A stretch of 64,000 nucleotides of DNA from Paenibacillus sp. (lineage in GTDB: Bacteria; Bacillota; Bacilli; Paenibacillales; NBRC-103111): NCBI GenBank assembly GCA_031180825.1, contig JAPSLM010000007.1, positions 62,001 to 126,000 of the forward strand, in the 5' to 3' direction. How positions within the stretch are numbered: the stretch's first letter is position 1; the number at the start of each line of letters is the position of its first letter. Both the position numbers and the translations under genes were made by a program. The notes below the pieces were generated by a model. The model searched no databases, was not told where the DNA came from, and was given only the letters and a program-made list of their open reading frames with translations. Shown in pieces: positions 16,909 through 25,041 of the stretch.

Positions 16909-18705
<1,797 letters not shown>

Positions 18706-18902: not shown

Positions 18903-19442
18903 TCAACGAACATCCAACGCGTACAGCGCATTTATAATTTTCTCCACATTATGCGTCAGGGAATGCACATCCGTATGAATGGTCAATTCCGCATGCTCCG
19001 GGGGCTCGTAGGCATCGGATATACCGGTAAAATTCGGAATAAGCCCAAGCCGCGCTTTGGCGTACAGACCTTTGACGTCCCGCCTCTCGCATACCTCCAG
19101 CGGACATTCGACATAAATTTCCATAAACCGGGACAGCACCGATCTCGCATAAGCTCTCATGCTGCGGTACGGCGTGATGGCCGACACGAGCACGATTGCG
19201 CCGCTGTCGGCATGCGCTTTGGCGAGCTCGACGATCCGGCGTATATGCTCAAGCCGGTCGGCCGGTGCAAAGCCCAAATCGCTGGACAGCGTCTTGCGCA
19301 GCTCGTCCCCGTCCAGCCATTCGACCCGGCGTCCCTGTTCGCGCAGAACGGATGCCGCCTCCCGCGCGGTCGTCGTTTTCCCCGAGCCGGACAGCCCGGT
19401 AAACCAAAGGACGGCGCCTTCCCTTTCGTTTAAAGACCGCAT
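18903..19442 (-). CDS. cysC: Adenylylsulfate kinase-like protein at the end of the STM4011-4015-type operon
   Basis: A 179-residue kinase of the CysC family. P-loop GLSGSGKTT (16-24), WLDGDELRKTLSSDLGF, RLEHIRRIVELA and SAITPYR match APS kinases. CysC makes PAPS from adenylylsulfate. No sulfate adenylyltransferase gene is adjacent, so its usual substrate is not made locally. GGAAGGAGG precedes the ATG, which overlaps the end of the upstream radical SAM gene by 13 bases. That tight coupling ties it to the operon. It could supply PAPS for sulfation or phosphorylate a pathway intermediate. Both are inferences. Confidence 0.88.
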   Translation of the reverse strand: MRSLNEREGAVLWFTGLSGSGKTTTAREAASVLREQGRRVEWLDGDELRKTLSSDLGFAPADRLEHIRRIVELAKAHADSGAIVLVSAITPYRSMRAYARSVLSRFMEIYVECPLEVCERRDVKGLYAKARLGLIPNFTGISDAYEPPEHAELTIHTDVHSLTHNVEKIINALYALDVR

Positions 19443-20332
19443 GGCGACGCCTCCTTCCCGGCATACTGCCCATCTGAACTGGGAATTCGCTCCAATATTC
19501 CTTTTCCGTAAATCGACTCCATAGCCAGCTCGGGCATATGTACGTATCCGATGTAACAGCCGCACGTTTTCATCCGGCACGGTCTCTCCGCGGACAATCG
19601 TTCCAAGCCGTCGCGATACAGGTTCCCGATCACTCCCCGGTCCTTATAGCAGCGCTTGACCAGCCCCGAGCCCGTCACGAAAAACACGCGGCTTCCCGTG
19701 GCGCAGGGCTTCCCCATGCTGTCATAATCCCGCGCGTTCCACTCGAAATAAGGGTCGATCTCGCGAAAGGCCGCCATCTCCTCGGCCGAATAGTACGCCG
19801 GCTGGTCCTTGTAGGCGTTCACCCACAAGTAAACCTCCTGGGGCAGCGCACGGCGCAGCGAACGGATCGGCTCCAGATAGCTTTTGATCCCGACGGAGCC
19901 GACGCTGAAAGAAATCCCTCTGTCGTAAAGCTGTGCGCACTGGGCGAGAAACGACGCTTCGCTCGTTTGACCGGGATGATACGTGACCCAAAACGCTGCC
20001 TTTTCTTTGTTCAGCCCGCTTGTCCAATCCAGCTTGACGGACAAGTTCGTCTGGATCGCCACTTTGTCGACGTGCTCCAGATGGGACAGCTCCGTTAACG
20101 CCTCGCGGTACCACCGGTGAACCAGCGCCTCGCCGTACGGATTGAAGAAGAGGGACAGACGTCTGCCGTCCGCCCCCTGCTCCCGCACCCATGCCACAAA
20201 CCGCTCCAGCTGCGCCTTGTCCTTCGCCAGCGTCTCGCGGCTGTCCGTCGTTTTGCTGAACGGGCAATACGGACAATCGTAGTTGCAGGAGGACAGCGCG
20301 CCCCGGTAATACAGCGTCGTGCTTACACGCAT
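19430..20332 (-). CDS. STM4011-family radical SAM protein
   Basis: A 300-residue radical SAM protein. The cluster motif CNYDCPYC (CX3CX2C) begins at about residue 17 and is followed by FSKTTDSRETLAKD. Three further cysteines sit near the C terminus (CRMKTCGCYIGY), suggesting a second metal site or an auxiliary cluster. The sequence matches the family I know by the Salmonella locus name STM4011, for which I know no reaction. The ATG lies inside the last codons of the upstream STM4012-like gene, an overlap of ten bases, so the two are translated together. Confidence 0.88.
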   Translation of the reverse strand: MRVSTTLYYRGALSSCNYDCPYCPFSKTTDSRETLAKDKAQLERFVAWVREQGADGRRLSLFFNPYGEALVHRWYREALTELSHLEHVDKVAIQTNLSVKLDWTSGLNKEKAAFWVTYHPGQTSEASFLAQCAQLYDRGISFSVGSVGIKSYLEPIRSLRRALPQEVYLWVNAYKDQPAYYSAEEMAAFREIDPYFEWNARDYDSMGKPCATGSRVFFVTGSGLVKRCYKDRGVIGNLYRDGLERLSAERPCRMKTCGCYIGYVHMPELAMESIYGKGILERIPSSDGQYAGKEASPCGL

Positions 20333-21669
20333 ACGTATTCCTCCATCCGCTCCCTGACCTCGGCTGAAATCAGCCAGTCGCCGATCGCATCGGAATATCC
20401 CATGCCTTCGTCCGTCAGGCGCATCGTCCCGTCTTCCAATGTGGCGAACCCGGCGGCCAGCAGCCGGCTCAGCTCGGGACGGTCGGCGAACGGATCGCTG
20501 CCGAACCTCGCTTCATAAGCGCGCCGCTCCAGCCCTTCGCGGTGGAGCAGCGCCTTGATCACGAAACGGCGCTGCTGCTCGGCCAGGTTCAGGACGTAGC
20601 CGTAATCGGCCGTATCGTAGCTTGACGCGGAGACGTAGTCGGCGATAATGCTTTGGGTCGCCTTGTAGCTTACGCCGTAGCGGGAAGCATAATGCACCTC
20701 CCTCGTGTACGAACGCGCGCCGCAGCCCAGACCGACCATCCCTTCCTCCTGACAGCCGTAAGGCAGCAGGTTCTTCCCGGACTTCGCGTCCGGCTTGGCG
20801 AAACGCCGCATCGAGAACGCCTCGTAGCCCCTCTCCTTCAAGCGCCCGCAAGCCGCACGGTACATATCCAGCCGGCGGTCCTGCCCACTTCGGCGCAGCT
20901 CCTCCGGTTTCAAAATCGTGTTCTCGCGCGTATACAGCGGGTAGATGAAAATTTCCTCAGGCTCGTATTCCAACGCCCGATCCAGCGAGTACAGCCACGA
21001 CTTCACCGTCTGGCCGGGCAGCCCGTAAATCAGATCGAGATTGAGCACGGCAAAGTCGTAGCGTTTCAACACTTCCAGCGCACGCCTCACTTCGCCCGGT
21101 TTTTGCGGGCGGTAGATCGCAGCCGCTTCGGCTTCGATGAAGCTTTGAATGCCCATGCTCACCCGGTCGACCTTCCGCTCCTTCAGCAGCTTCATTCGCG
21201 CATCGGTCACGGTGTCCGGGGACGTCTCGACGGAGATCGAGGCACAGTCCGGATCGAGGCCCATGACCTGCTCCGCGATATCGAACAAACGTTCGAGCAG
21301 CCGTTCGTTCAGCAGCGTCGGCGTCCCGCCGCCGATCGCAAAGCGGGAAAACGGCCGATGGGCCACCATGGGCGCCCACTGTCTGGCCTGGCGCTCCAGT
21401 GCGGAGACATACTGCTCGTGCGCGTCGGCGCTCCGGTCCGGCAGCGTAAACAGATTGCAGAAGCCGCACCGGGCCGCGCAGAACGGAATGTGCATATATA
21501 AAAAGAACGACTCCCCGCTTTCCCGCTTCCACAGCTCGTGCAGCGGCAGCGGCGGGTTCAGTTCGCGATAGGCCGTTTTATGCGGATAGGAGTACAAGTA
21601 AGACCGGTACGGCGATGCGGCGATCTGCTCCGACCAGCGCCGGATGTCTTCTGATTCCCGGAATTCCAC
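20323..21669 (-). CDS. STM4012-family radical SAM protein (HemN-like)
   Basis: A 448-residue protein with the HemN-type cluster motif HIPFCAARCGFCNLF (CX3CX2C), the glycine-rich FAIGGGTPTLL and the SISVETSPDTVTDARM segment shared with coproporphyrinogen oxidase-like enzymes, and a C-terminal HemN domain. HemN-like proteins include methyltransferases and heme chaperones, so the name alone gives no reaction. The family name STM4012 is from memory. The GTG at 21667-21669 is chosen because AAAGGAGGGG lies just upstream. The open frame further 5' lacks similarity. Confidence 0.88.
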   Translation of the reverse strand: MEFRESEDIRRWSEQIAASPYRSYLYSYPHKTAYRELNPPLPLHELWKRESGESFFLYMHIPFCAARCGFCNLFTLPDRSADAHEQYVSALERQARQWAPMVAHRPFSRFAIGGGTPTLLNERLLERLFDIAEQVMGLDPDCASISVETSPDTVTDARMKLLKERKVDRVSMGIQSFIEAEAAAIYRPQKPGEVRRALEVLKRYDFAVLNLDLIYGLPGQTVKSWLYSLDRALEYEPEEIFIYPLYTRENTILKPEELRRSGQDRRLDMYRAACGRLKERGYEAFSMRRFAKPDAKSGKNLLPYGCQEEGMVGLGCGARSYTREVHYASRYGVSYKATQSIIADYVSASSYDTADYGYVLNLAEQQRRFVIKALLHREGLERRAYEARFGSDPFADRPELSRLLAAGFATLEDGTMRLTDEGMGYSDAIGDWLISAEVRERMEEYVCV

Positions 21670-21700
21670 TTGATGCCCCTCCTTTGTGTGGCTGTTATAT

Positions 21701-22486
21701 CTACAAAATAAACTCCCGGTACGGCACGTTCCATACGACTTCGTGCGCCAGCCGGTGTCCGTGATACCCGTCCTCGCCGTAAGCGGTCCCGTGATCGGAA
21801 CAGACGATGCAGAACGTCTTGGCCCGCGCACGCATCGCCTCGAACAGCCGTCCGAGCTGTCCGTCCACATAGCGCAGCGCCGCCCGCTGGGTTTCGACCG
21901 AATCGCGCTTGGCGCCGGGCACGAAATAATGGTTCGGACCGTGTATGGCGCTCACGTTCATGAAGAGAAACAGCCTTTGGCCCGGTTCGGCTGCGCCGAT
22001 CAGCTTCAGCGCATGGTTCACCTGATGCTCGGTGGAGCGCGGATTCGTTACGCCGAACGTCTGACGCCAGTAGCTCTCTTGAAAATACGACGGAAGCACT
22101 TTCGCCAGCGCTACTTTTTTCGTAAAAAAAATAACGCCGCCGATACAGATCGTCCGGTATCCTTCCGCGGCAAGGCCGGAGACGATGTCGGGCGTATCGA
22201 ACAGCCAGGTGTTCGGGCTGGTCGGCAGTCCCGTATGTTTCGAATGGAACAGCCGGACATGGCTGGCTTTATCCGTATTCGCGGGCGTCGGCAAAAAACC
22301 GCCGAAGAAAGCGTGATGCGCGGCATACGTAAAGCTGCCCGGCGTATGACGCCTTTCCCAGCCGCCCGTGCCGCACAGGTTGGGGCAGTTCTCTTCCTCC
22401 AGCTTCGCCACGTCGTAGCGCAGCGTGTCAAGCGTCACAAATAAAATGTCGTGCGTGCCGACAATGTCGTTCATATTGATGGTCAT
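21701..22486 (-). CDS. STM4013/SEN3800-family hydrolase (alkaline phosphatase/sulfatase fold)
   Basis: A 261-residue protein of the sulfatase/alkaline phosphatase superfamily. It starts with a metal-binding strand DILFVTLDTLRYD (residues 13-25). The C-terminal metal site is SDHGTAYGEDGYHGH. The usual catalytic Cys/Ser nucleophile motif C/S-x-P-x-R is absent. A GSFTYAAHHAFFGG segment occupies that place. This implies an unusual nucleophile or a non-hydrolytic transfer role. It begins three bases after the STM4014-like stop, in the middle of the operon. Confidence 0.86.
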   Translation of the reverse strand: MTINMNDIVGTHDILFVTLDTLRYDVAKLEEENCPNLCGTGGWERRHTPGSFTYAAHHAFFGGFLPTPANTDKASHVRLFHSKHTGLPTSPNTWLFDTPDIVSGLAAEGYRTICIGGVIFFTKKVALAKVLPSYFQESYWRQTFGVTNPRSTEHQVNHALKLIGAAEPGQRLFLFMNVSAIHGPNHYFVPGAKRDSVETQRAALRYVDGQLGRLFEAMRARAKTFCIVCSDHGTAYGEDGYHGHRLAHEVVWNVPYREFIL

Positions 22487-22489
22487 GCT

Positions 22490-23677
22490 TCATTCATCCT
22501 TTAACATGCGGGTCATTTGCCATTCATAGGTGTCCATTCCTTCGTAACGGACGTTCAGCAGCAGATCGCCGAACGGATTGATATCGACAATATAAGGACG
22601 CAAGCCGCCTTTGGCAAGAAGCACATCGATTCCCGCCACTGCGGAACGCGGAAACAGCGACGCAACCTGCTCCCCGGCCTCGGCCACCGCCTGAACGGCA
22701 GCCGCGGGCAGCCCGAGCTCCTCCAGAGCCGCCCGCTCGTTGCGCAGGTGCAGGTTCGTGATCGGCGTGCGGCTGAGCCGGGCAACCCGGTGGCACGCTT
22801 CGCCGCCGACGACGAGCTGGCGGATATCGAACGCACGCCCGCCATGGGAAGCCTTCTGCACCCACTGCTCGACGTGCATGCCTTGAGCGCCCAGCCAATT
22901 CATGATTTCGCGGATGATCGGGCGTTCACGGTACCTGCGGATACGGCGCGAATTGTAATATATCCGTTCGTACCCATGGCGCTCGAAGCCGATCGTCGTG
23001 TCGGCCAGTTCCGCTCCGGTAGAAGGGTTAATCTGATAAGCCAGCACGCCGGAGGCCGAAGAGCCGAACGCGAGCTTGACGAAGACGCGCCGCATGCCGG
23101 CCCGCTCCATCGCTTCGCGGAGCTGGTCGTAGCTCCGGATGGAGCCTGCCTCCCCGGGAGCCGGCGGAACCCTCACGCCCCGGGAGCTGAGCAGCCTGTG
23201 GCAGCGGCGCTTGTCGAACATGACCGCGATTTCCTGCGGATCGTTCGTCCAGCTCGCTTCGGGCGCCGTATCGGCCAAGTCGGCACGAAACCCGGACAGC
23301 ATACGGCAGAAGCCGCGAAACCATTGCGAAGGGTAGTAGATGCGTCCCGGCTGTTCAGGCAGGTTCCGGGCTGCTTGCGCCGAGATGACCGGCATCGGGA
23401 GAAACTCCGGCAATGGGAACAGCTCGTCCGTTTCCCCGCCGTCGGCCGCGCCGAGCGCGATCAGCTCGCGCTCCACCGGGAAATACTCGCCGGGCGAGTC
23501 CAGCCGGACAAGGACAGGCTTGCCGCCGGTTACCTCCCGCCAGCGGACGCGTCCCTGCAGCAGGTCGAGATAGGGCACGACCTGCGCCGGAGGCATCCCG
23601 AGCCTCCGGCGCGCTTCCTGCAGCATCGTCGTCCTCCGGTTACCGGGATTGCCAACAACAATCAGCGGACGGGGCAT
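22490..23677 (-). CDS. STM4014-family protein with ATP-grasp features
   Basis: A 395-residue protein. The C-terminal two thirds read as an ATP-grasp: FVKLAFGSSASGV for the first lysine strand, VEQWVQKASHGGRAFDIR for the central segment, and AGIDVLLAKGG with YIVDINPFGDLL for the magnesium-binding acid and Asn. ATP-grasp enzymes join a carboxylate to an amine or thiol through an acyl phosphate. The N-terminal 100 residues form a nucleotide-binding-like alpha/beta region. Its ATG directly follows the STM4015-like stop (TAG then ATG). The assignment to the STM4014 family is from memory. The ATP-grasp reading is mine. Confidence 0.85.
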   Translation of the reverse strand: MPRPLIVVGNPGNRRTTMLQEARRRLGMPPAQVVPYLDLLQGRVRWREVTGGKPVLVRLDSPGEYFPVERELIALGAADGGETDELFPLPEFLPMPVISAQAARNLPEQPGRIYYPSQWFRGFCRMLSGFRADLADTAPEASWTNDPQEIAVMFDKRRCHRLLSSRGVRVPPAPGEAGSIRSYDQLREAMERAGMRRVFVKLAFGSSASGVLAYQINPSTGAELADTTIGFERHGYERIYYNSRRIRRYRERPIIREIMNWLGAQGMHVEQWVQKASHGGRAFDIRQLVVGGEACHRVARLSRTPITNLHLRNERAALEELGLPAAAVQAVAEAGEQVASLFPRSAVAGIDVLLAKGGLRPYIVDINPFGDLLLNVRYEGMDTYEWQMTRMLKDE

Positions 23678-24523
23678 CTACTCCGTGACCGCCGGATAGC
23701 GCCAGTCGTCGTCATCGTCGCTCTGCTGCTGGTCGCTGACATCGACGGACATGCCCGACGTTTGCCAGCGTTTTATCATCTCGTCCGACATGTAGTGGTA
23801 GTTCAGGTCGAGGAACGAGAGCTTCCGGACGCGTTCGCTTGACAACAGCGCTTCGGCGCCTTTGTCGCTAAGGGTTCCCAGCGATAAATCGAGCGTATGC
23901 AATTGGTCCAGAATCGGCGAATTCGCAATCTCCATCGCGATTTCGTCTTGAATCTCGCTGTCTTTAAGACCGAGATAGGTCAGCTTGGGAAAGCGTCCCG
24001 GCTCCATAAACGGCTTGATGTCCTCCAGACTGCCGTCGAAGCCGTAGTCCTCTACGCCGAGATAAAGCTCCAGCTTGCGCAGCTCCGGCAGCTCGGCGTC
24101 GCGAAGATCGGCGAGCACTGCCTTGCTCAAGCCGCCGCAGATAATCACCAATTCCTCCAGCCGTTCGTGCTTCAACGGCTTTAAGGACAAGTCGGTGCTG
24201 CCTTTAACCCAGAACGAAGCCAGCTGCGGAAACGCCTCCAGAATCGGAGCCAGGTTCGTCTGCATAATCCACGAAATTTCGCATTCCTCCGAGTCCATAT
24301 CCCCGATAAACAGCTTGCGCAGCGCCGGGAAAGCGTCTTTATGCCCGATCAAGGTATCCACGAACGTATCGGGACCTTCTTCATAGGCTTGTCCCCACGA
24401 GCCGATCGTCAGCTCAACGACCTCCCGGCTCTCGGGCTTCCCGGCCAACTGCTCGATTAACTGATCCATGCGCATTCCAGCTTCATAATCATCATAACCG
24501 ATTTCCAAACGGACTTCCGTCAT
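23678..24523 (-). CDS. STM4015-family leucine-rich-repeat protein
   Basis: A 281-residue protein with six or so leucine-rich repeats between about residues 70 and 250 (LRKLFIG, LEELVIICGG, LRKLELYLG, LTYLGLKDSEI, LHTLDLSLG, LSFLDLNYH). After the last repeat comes a polar, acidic tail with five consecutive Asp, ending WRYPAVTE. The LRR region could bind another protein. The tail looks like an exposed peptide substrate. It is the first gene of the six-gene operon. The ATG at 24521-24523 has GGGAGGG seven bases upstream. Family name from memory. Function unknown. Confidence 0.87.
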   Translation of the reverse strand: MTEVRLEIGYDDYEAGMRMDQLIEQLAGKPESREVVELTIGSWGQAYEEGPDTFVDTLIGHKDAFPALRKLFIGDMDSEECEISWIMQTNLAPILEAFPQLASFWVKGSTDLSLKPLKHERLEELVIICGGLSKAVLADLRDAELPELRKLELYLGVEDYGFDGSLEDIKPFMEPGRFPKLTYLGLKDSEIQDEIAMEIANSPILDQLHTLDLSLGTLSDKGAEALLSSERVRKLSFLDLNYHYMSDEMIKRWQTSGMSVDVSDQQQSDDDDDWRYPAVTE

Positions 24524-24587: not shown

Positions 24588-24669
24588 TCCGAACAAAACG
24601 TGCGTCGTACCGGAGATGCCGGGTCAAGAGATTTTTCATTCACTTTAGAGAATTTTCTGTAAATTTTGT

Positions 24670-24697
24670 TGACAGCGAACAAACGTTTGGTATAATA
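24670..24697 (+). promoter_or_regulatory. Strong sigma-A promoter
   Basis: A perfect TTGACA (24670-24675) and a perfect TATAAT (24692-24697) with a 16-base spacer lie 48 bases before the small gene at 24745. It points away from the radical SAM operon. Confidence 0.85.
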
Positions 24698-24744
24698 GAG
24701 AACAAGAACGCATGTTCCTATTTCCTGAGAGGAGTGTAGATACG

Positions 24745-25041
24745 ATGGTGACGAATGTTAGATTTATCGAACGGGACTACTACAAAAATGTCATGGCGGA
24801 AAATGGAGAAAACCTGACGGAGCAGCAGATCGAAAAAATTTTGGACGCATCCGAGCCGTCCTGGGCCGATCTTACCTTTAAATTTTTCGAGAACGGATCG
24901 ATGATCATCATCGACAACCATACCGAGCTACAAGTCCCTCTCAGCAGTTTGAGCGGAGCGGCATGCGAGTTCTACGCCCAGCAGCGGATTAAGATGATTA
25001 AAGCCAAGCTCAGAAATCAGAAAATTACGGAAGCATCCTAA
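24745..25041 (+). CDS. Unknown small conserved-looking protein
   Basis: A 98-residue acidic-then-basic protein that I do not recognise. It has no membrane segment or signal peptide. The C-terminal part (CEFYAQQRIKMIKAKLRN) is a predicted amphipathic basic helix. The ATG was chosen because AGAGGAG lies about ten bases upstream. An upstream in-frame ATG has no ribosome site. A consensus promoter drives it, which suggests strong constitutive expression. It is divergent from the STM4015-like operon but nothing links the two functions. Confidence 0.75.
   Translation: MVTNVRFIERDYYKNVMAENGENLTEQQIEKILDASEPSWADLTFKFFENGSMIIIDNHTELQVPLSSLSGAACEFYAQQRIKMIKAKLRNQKITEAS

What the first reader, a model, noticed from the sequence alone, without database searches (positions are those of the whole stretch)
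18903..24523. Six-gene operon of unknown function: LRR protein, ATP-grasp, phosphatase-fold protein, two radical SAM enzymes and CysC
The genes overlap or abut at every junction, so they work together. Two radical SAM proteins, an ATP-grasp-like protein and a sulfatase/phosphatase-fold protein are the tools of a modification pathway. The families carry only the names STM4011-STM4015 from Salmonella, and I know no assigned function. Occurrence in a Firmicute next to a CysC gene without CysN/D or sulfate adenylyltransferase suggests a specialised sulfuryl or phosphoryl step. The LRR protein may be a target or scaffold.
Basis: partly seen in the sequence, partly recalled or inferred. Interest (0 to 1): 0.85.

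Follow-up and report, generated by a model that had tools for sequence, protein, structure and literature searches.

The report
LRR protein-tail carrier pathway
Five genes found side by side across many bacteria encode a repeat protein that ends in the same glutamate in nearly every relative examined, next to an enzyme predicted to fold like those that attach amino acids to such a terminal glutamate, so the repeat protein is likely a carrier or substrate on which two radical enzymes would build or change an unknown chemical group.

Summary
The operon is real. Five genes (STM4015-4014-4013-4012-4011) form an all-or-none cassette: the same 18 of 250 Bacilli genomes pass the cut-off for 4015, 4014, 4013 and 4011, and in 8 of 8 genomes whose fetched locus lacks the full cluster, 4011 is still encoded in the genome. 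CysC is probably a passenger (adjacent in 4 of 22 Paenibacillales loci). New here: the LRR protein STM4015 has a conserved C-terminal tail (acidic run, aromatic, mostly L/I/V, small residue, Glu-COOH). Glu is last in 116 of 116 distinct stop-anchored ORFs; the four partner enzymes have no such C-terminus. In a tandem fusion only the copy that ends the chain keeps the tail. The STM4014 model (pLDDT 93) matches ArgX bound to its carrier LysW best, then LysX and RimK, ligases that act on a protein's C-terminal Glu; other ATP-grasp folds score close behind. STM4011 resembles BlsE/SkfB, STM4012 HemN/NocN; STM4013 has an invariant Thr where phosphodiesterases keep their nucleophile; a HAD phosphatase is often fused to STM4011. 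Best reading: STM4014 loads STM4015's terminal Glu, and radical and phosphoryl enzymes work on the tethered group. Chemistry and product are untested.

The parts
23678..24523 (-). STM4015, acidic LRR protein (281 aa, net charge -31); proposed carrier or substrate
   Evidence: NF038076 365.7 bits; relative solved as 2RA8, profile E 2.3e-102; charge
23681..23740 (-). Conserved C-terminal tail of STM4015, VSDQQQSDDDDDWRYPAVTE, ending in the invariant Glu
   Evidence: Glu last in 116 of 116 distinct stop-anchored ORFs, 112 of 112, 235 of 236 listed database proteins
22490..23677 (-). STM4014, ATP-grasp protein (395 aa), predicted ligase of the ArgX/LysX/RimK fold group
   Evidence: NF038074 452.2 bits; model pLDDT 93.2; Foldseek and VIA-align
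21701..22486 (-). STM4013, alkaline-phosphatase-superfamily protein (261 aa) with an invariant Thr at the likely nucleophile position
   Evidence: NF038075 410.7 bits; Pfam; PDB profile; residue counts
20323..21669 (-). STM4012, HemN-like radical SAM protein (448 aa from the GTG at 21669; the ORF is open to 21870)
   Evidence: NF006067 596.2 bits; HemN 1olt 192 bits, NocN 9p2u 120 bits
19430..20332 (-). STM4011, radical SAM protein (300 aa) with CX3CX2C and five further conserved Cys, likely one auxiliary cluster
   Evidence: NF038073 411.1 bits; model pLDDT 92.2; SkfB and BlsE matches
18903..19442 (-). CysC (APS kinase family), overlaps STM4011 by 13 nt; judged a passenger
   Evidence: TIGR00455 213.9 bits; adjacent in 4 of 22 Paenibacillales loci; G225

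Best explanation
The five-gene cassette likely works like an amino-group carrier system: the acidic LRR protein STM4015 ends in a conserved Glu, and the ATP-grasp protein STM4014 is predicted to activate that Glu with ATP and join an amine-bearing small molecule to it. While tethered, the group would be changed by the two radical SAM enzymes, STM4011 (BlsE/SkfB-like) and STM4012 (HemN/NocN-like), and a phosphoryl group would be handled by STM4013 and by the HAD phosphatase that many lineages fuse to STM4011. Shown here: the gene set and its co-occurrence, the invariant C-terminal Glu and the acidity of STM4015, the folds of the STM4014 and STM4011 models, and conservation of the residues that ATP-grasp and radical SAM enzymes need. 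Inferred: that the C-terminal Glu is covalently loaded, that STM4014 does it, and the order of steps. Unknown: the loaded compound, the product, and whether it is released or stays on the protein.
Confidence: 0.5

Rival explanations
1. RiPP-like maturation: the STM4015 tail is a core peptide whose own residues are modified or cross-linked by the radical SAM enzymes, with STM4014 making an amide or ester bond; the product stays on the protein or is clipped off, in the way of PQQ or mycofactocin.
For: STM4011 is close to the RiPP maturase SkfB; the tail has conserved aromatic, small and acidic residues; tandem STM4015 copies, 2 or 3, occur in L024, L025, L126, L127, L071 and L088.
Against: The tail tolerates Tyr, Asn, Phe and Trp at -6 and varies at -7, and only the last three positions are strict; the carrier domain is a 30-kDa LRR, not a short leader; the best small-molecule match, BlsE, scores above SkfB by VIA-align.
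Confidence: 0.22
2. Docking tail: the C-terminus is a recognition or capping element that holds the enzymes or the LRR fold together and is never covalently changed; the substrate is a free small molecule.
For: A free C-terminal Glu can be bound as well as modified; the relative 2RA8 was solved with a construct that the profile matches up to its last position.
Against: The nearest folds of STM4014 are enzymes whose substrate is a protein C-terminus; extra STM4015 copies keep the tail away from the cassette.
Confidence: 0.15
3. RimK-like glutamylation: STM4014 adds one or more glutamates or another amino acid to STM4015 as a regulatory mark, and the radical SAM enzymes act on a different substrate.
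For: RimK is among the best matches in sequence and fold.
Against: 4011 stays with the system in 8 of 8 genomes whose locus lacks the full cluster and the same 18 of 250 genomes carry 4015, 4014, 4013 and 4011, which ties the radical enzymes to the same pathway.
Confidence: 0.1
4. Sulfuryl pathway: CysC supplies PAPS for a sulfation, and STM4013 is a sulfatase.
For: cysC overlaps 4011 here and in G225 and follows it in two Saccharibacillus loci; Pfam's first hit for STM4013 is Sulfatase.
Against: CysC is not adjacent in 18 of 22 Paenibacillales loci nor in the other cassette loci; invariant Thr instead of Cys/Ser in STM4013; G225 has genes for ordinary sulfate assimilation.
Confidence: 0.03

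Closest known systems
LysW/ArgW amino-group carrier protein with LysX/ArgX (lysine and arginine biosynthesis)
   Same: Acidic protein with a C-terminal Glu beside an ATP-grasp ligase; the STM4014 model matches ArgX-LysW best; LysW facts from passages of PMC10433800 and PMC9303977
   Different: LRR domain instead of a small zinc domain; no EDWGE in STM4015 and no GSWGR in the window STM4014; two radical SAM enzymes and phosphoesterases instead of LysZ/Y/J/K
RimK, ribosomal protein S6 glutamate ligase
   Same: ATP-grasp fold, acts on a protein C-terminus; among the best matches
   Different: STM4014 has its own family and only 5 of 58 relatives hit the RimK Pfam model
Pearlins (3-thiaglutamate, 3-thiahomoleucine on a carrier peptide)
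   Same: Small-molecule chemistry, radical SAM included, on the C-terminus of a carrier (PMC9303977, passages)
   Different: Pearlins load with an aminoacyl-tRNA-dependent PEARL on a short peptide; here the proposed ligase is ATP-grasp and the carrier an LRR protein
SkfB and BlsE, radical SAM enzymes with auxiliary-cluster domains
   Same: Best structural matches of STM4011
   Different: Their substrates are a peptide and a nucleoside sugar (recalled); the substrate of STM4011 is unknown
HemN and NocN
   Same: STM4012 profile matches both, 192 and 120 bits
   Different: STM4012 forms its own family (NF006067) and scores below the HemN and HemW equivalog cut-offs

Membership tests
STM4011-STM4015 cassette (NCBIfam NF038073-NF038076, NF006067) | Each protein above its family's curated cut-off, in one cluster | tested here: met
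   order read
LysW/AmCP carrier | C-terminal Glu | tested here: met
   116 of 116 distinct ORFs; 235 of 236 database proteins
LysW/AmCP carrier | EDWGE motif at the C-terminus | tested here: not met
   Tail ends WRYPAVTE in the window; last-residue columns
LysW/AmCP carrier | Zinc-binding Cys domain | tested here: not met
   LRR protein; Pfam LRR_6, relative 2RA8
LysW/AmCP carrier | Covalent loading of the terminal Glu | not testable with these tools
   Needs mass spectrometry
LysX/ArgX/RimK ligases | ATP-grasp fold nearest to this group | tested here: met
   other ATP-grasp folds within about 1.5 Z
LysX/ArgX/RimK ligases | RimK Pfam model (PF08443) | tested here: inconclusive
   5 of 58 relatives at E <= 0.01, not the window protein
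LysX/ArgX ligases | GSWGR motif that reads the carrier | tested here: not met
   Window STM4014 has GSSASG after the invariant Lys 201; consensus GSGAAG
SPASM/twitch radical SAM | CX3CX2C plus auxiliary-cluster cysteines | tested here: met
   C16, C20, C23, C210, C228 invariant, C252, C257, C259 nearly so; cluster itself not shown
SPASM/twitch radical SAM | SPASM Pfam model (PF13186) | tested here: inconclusive
   2 of 57 long STM4011 ORFs
Sulfatase | Pfam Sulfatase model | tested here: met
   PF00884 39.2 bits, cut-off 25; PF01663 phosphodiesterase 27.4, cut-off 23
Sulfatase | Cys or Ser that becomes formylglycine (C/S-x-P-x-R, recalled) | tested here: not met
   Thr in 115 of 115 rows with a letter at the aligned position; position assigned by alignment, no structure
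Anti-phage defence system | Full-length matches to PADLOC models | tested here: inconclusive
   Partial match of STM4012 to candidate model PDC-M51A, E 1.3e-10, residues 210-321; weak pVip and mads hits for STM4011 and CysC

The most novel reading that the evidence does not exclude
A new class of carrier-protein biosynthesis in which a leucine-rich-repeat protein is the carrier: a LysX/RimK-like ligase hangs a small molecule on its C-terminal glutamate and two radical SAM enzymes, with phosphoryl-handling partners, build a cofactor or signal there, across Bacillota, Bacteroidota, Deinococcota, Actinomycetota and Pseudomonadota.
Probability: 0.33. Interest if true: 0.92.

Novelty: new variant of a known kind. 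Interest (0 to 1): 0.72.

Why it matters
The five families bear only locus-tag names, yet the cassette is kept as a unit in at least five phyla, gut Lachnospiraceae and Bacteroides and Salmonella included. The invariant C-terminal Glu beside an ArgX/LysX/RimK-like ligase turns a function-unknown operon into a testable chemical hypothesis: look for added mass on the last residue of STM4015. If right, it adds an LRR scaffold and two radical SAM steps to the small group of pathways that do small-molecule chemistry on a protein's C-terminus.

Tried and rejected
Sulfuryl pathway with CysC: rejected as part of the system. The missing ATP sulfurylase and PAPS-reductase family in this genome are not used as evidence, since the assembly is 85% complete.

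Defence system: PADLOC gave a partial match of STM4012 to a candidate model (PDC-M51A, E 1.3e-10, residues 210-321) and weak pVip and mads hits; I read these as shared radical SAM and P-loop domains.

A peptidase for product release: the M3 oligoendopeptidase at 16909-18705 was sought in the fetched loci L001-L132 and found only in this genome's own; flanks there are mostly 9 kb or less.

Literature: STM4011-STM4015 (2 papers), radical SAM + ATP-grasp + leucine-rich repeat + HemN + RiPP (0 papers with four of five), the three core terms (0), SEN3800, 2RA8, DUF6745, NF038073, SEN3798, STM4010 (1 paper). Only table rows were seen, in PMC3844500, PMC2784778 and PMC4632510; none assigns a function. 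The library lacks most subscription papers.

P0186, one listed protein that runs STM4015 in frame into STM4014, may be a lost stop codon or a sequencing error and is not used as support. Models of STM4015 or of a complex were not made (both jobs went to STM4014 and STM4011); the viral fold library was not searched.

Limits of samples and rows dropped: one search kept the best 80 of 582 confirmed loci, ranked by likeness to the Salmonella STM4015, so it is rich in Lachnospiraceae. In the C-terminus count L002-L019 were left out as duplicates of L108-L124 and the window, ORFs cut by a contig end were left out, and rows identical over their last 60 residues were merged. The charge count was not freed of such duplicates. 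The models used 57 of 98 and 46 of 87 candidate relatives listed, plus the window's protein. Searches list 120 of 2212 and 120 of 509 hits, and one search scored only the 7998 candidates sharing most words.

Mended since: the PADLOC partial match, the Pfam ranking for STM4014 and STM4013, the wording on split clusters, and small shifts of the odds so that they add to one.
Full report
WHAT IS THERE. The operon lies on the - strand, 24523 to 18903. NCBIfam assigns STM4015 (365.7 bits), STM4014 (452.2), STM4013 (410.7), STM4012 (596.2) and STM4011 (411.1), all above cut-off, followed by an APS kinase, CysC (213.9). From the sequence: 4015 and 4014 abut (0 nt), 4014-4013 are 3 nt apart, 4012-4011 overlap by 10 nt, 4011-cysC overlap by 13 nt. 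The 4013-4012 junction has a 31-nt gap if 4012 starts at the GTG at 21669 after an AGGAGG-like site, so 'overlap or abut at every junction' holds for four of five. The nearest named STM4015 relative is from Paenibacillus oleatilyticus, 91% identical.

THE UNIT IS FIVE GENES, NOT SIX. Over 250 Bacilli genomes, 18 pass the cut-off for STM4015, and the same 18 pass it for STM4011, STM4014 and STM4013. STM4012 was not searched as a family there; it is present in all 17 cassettes re-fetched from those genomes, each in full order. Of 80 genome loci fetched with an STM4015 alignment, 62 hold all five in order, and in 77 the gene next to 4015 among the five is 4014. In eight genomes whose fetched locus lacks the full cluster (L031, L032, L043, L065, L070, L083, L102, L103), 4011 is present over cut-off in all eight; in L102 it lies about 5 kb upstream, and L103 is cut by a contig end just after 4013. 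On plasmids the order recurs in Deinococcus, Salmonella, Methylobacterium, Streptomyces and Paenibacillus. Of 14 plasmid records with STM4015, 13 have STM4011; the other, a Calothrix plasmid, was not followed into its chromosome.

CYSC. It is adjacent in 4 of 22 Paenibacillales loci (window, L108, L092, L100; of window, L027, L092, L093, L100, L108-L124) and in none of the other fetched cassette loci. In G225 the cassette CysC is the only APS kinase match, and the genome has ATP sulfurylase and a PAPS-reductase-family gene; in five further genomes with the cassette the APS kinase lies elsewhere. The window genome lacks both other families but is 85% complete.

THE TAIL. STM4015 ends in a linker rich in Asp and Glu, then an aromatic or Arg-aromatic stretch, mostly L/I/V at -3, a small residue (T, G, S, A) at -2 and Glu. 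Glu is last in 112 of 112 ORFs; in 116 of 116 distinct stop-anchored ORFs, 4.32 bits, with 3.49 and 3.22 bits at -2 and -3; and in 120 of 120 and 115 of 116 listed database proteins. As an internal control the last residue of 4014, 4013, 4012 and 4011 in the same loci has 0.55, 1.57, 0.89 and 0.51 bits. The one exception, P0186, continues in frame into STM4014. In P0121 (Chloroflexota) two LRR copies share one chain; the inner copy lacks the motif and the outer ends DRFVAVGE. STM4015 copies away from a cassette keep the tail (L125, L131, a - strand copy in L129), as does an 805-aa fusion (L094) in a genome that also holds a full cassette (L078). Tandem copies occur in L024, L025, L126, L127, L071 and L088. 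STM4015 is strongly acidic (mean -9.8 per 100 aa over 139 matches; tail mean -6.5 in 25 residues); its partners are within about 1.3 of neutral.

HOW IT MOST LIKELY WORKS. STM4014 would phosphorylate the terminal Glu of STM4015 with ATP and couple an amine to it; STM4011 and STM4012 would then do radical chemistry on the tethered group, and STM4013 and the HAD protein would remove or move phosphate. The ligation step is inferred from fold, tail and gene pairing; the radical and phosphoryl steps from families; the compound is unknown. Odds: this 0.5, RiPP-like core peptide 0.22, docking tail 0.15, RimK-like glutamylation 0.1, sulfuryl pathway 0.03.

WHAT IS NEW. The families and their neighbourhood are named in databases, so the cassette as such is known. 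In the searches made here no paper assigns it a function or describes the STM4015 tail. It is not a member of the LysW family (no zinc domain, no EDWGE, no GSWGR in the ligase), but would work like one.

Noticed in passing
16909-18705: M3 family oligoendopeptidase gene directly downstream of cysC on the same strand; no relative was found in the other fetched loci.
   Followed up: partly
24669-24696: Perfect TTGACA-16-TATAAT promoter-like site on the + strand before a 109-aa ORF (24712-25041); site numbers in the region are not above shuffles.
   Followed up: no
L020:11914-13235, L023:5530-6855, L024:5216-6680, L025:12843-14140, L126:12957-14266, L130:2415-4037: A DUF6745 protein and a ~100-aa protein flank the cassette in Deinococcus, Methylobacterium and Streptomyces; the DUF6745 C-termini read Y-x-P-x-x-E-[TA] in 5 of 6 (Q for E in the sixth), faintly like the STM4015 tail.
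   Followed up: partly
L022:8800-9210: Bacteroides finegoldii plasmid cassette is broken: a start piece of 4013 and an end piece of 4012 remain between 4014 and 4011.
   Followed up: no
L094:7405-9819: 805-aa ORF with an N-terminal part without a Pfam match and a C-terminal STM4015 domain with the tail.
   Followed up: partly
L097:8581-9831: Bacteroides STM4015 carries an N-terminal WGR domain, 64.7 bits.
   Followed up: no
L132:4564-11338: The closest plasmid CysC (57% identical) lies among three annotated sulfatase-like genes in Paenibacillus cellulositrophicus.
   Followed up: no
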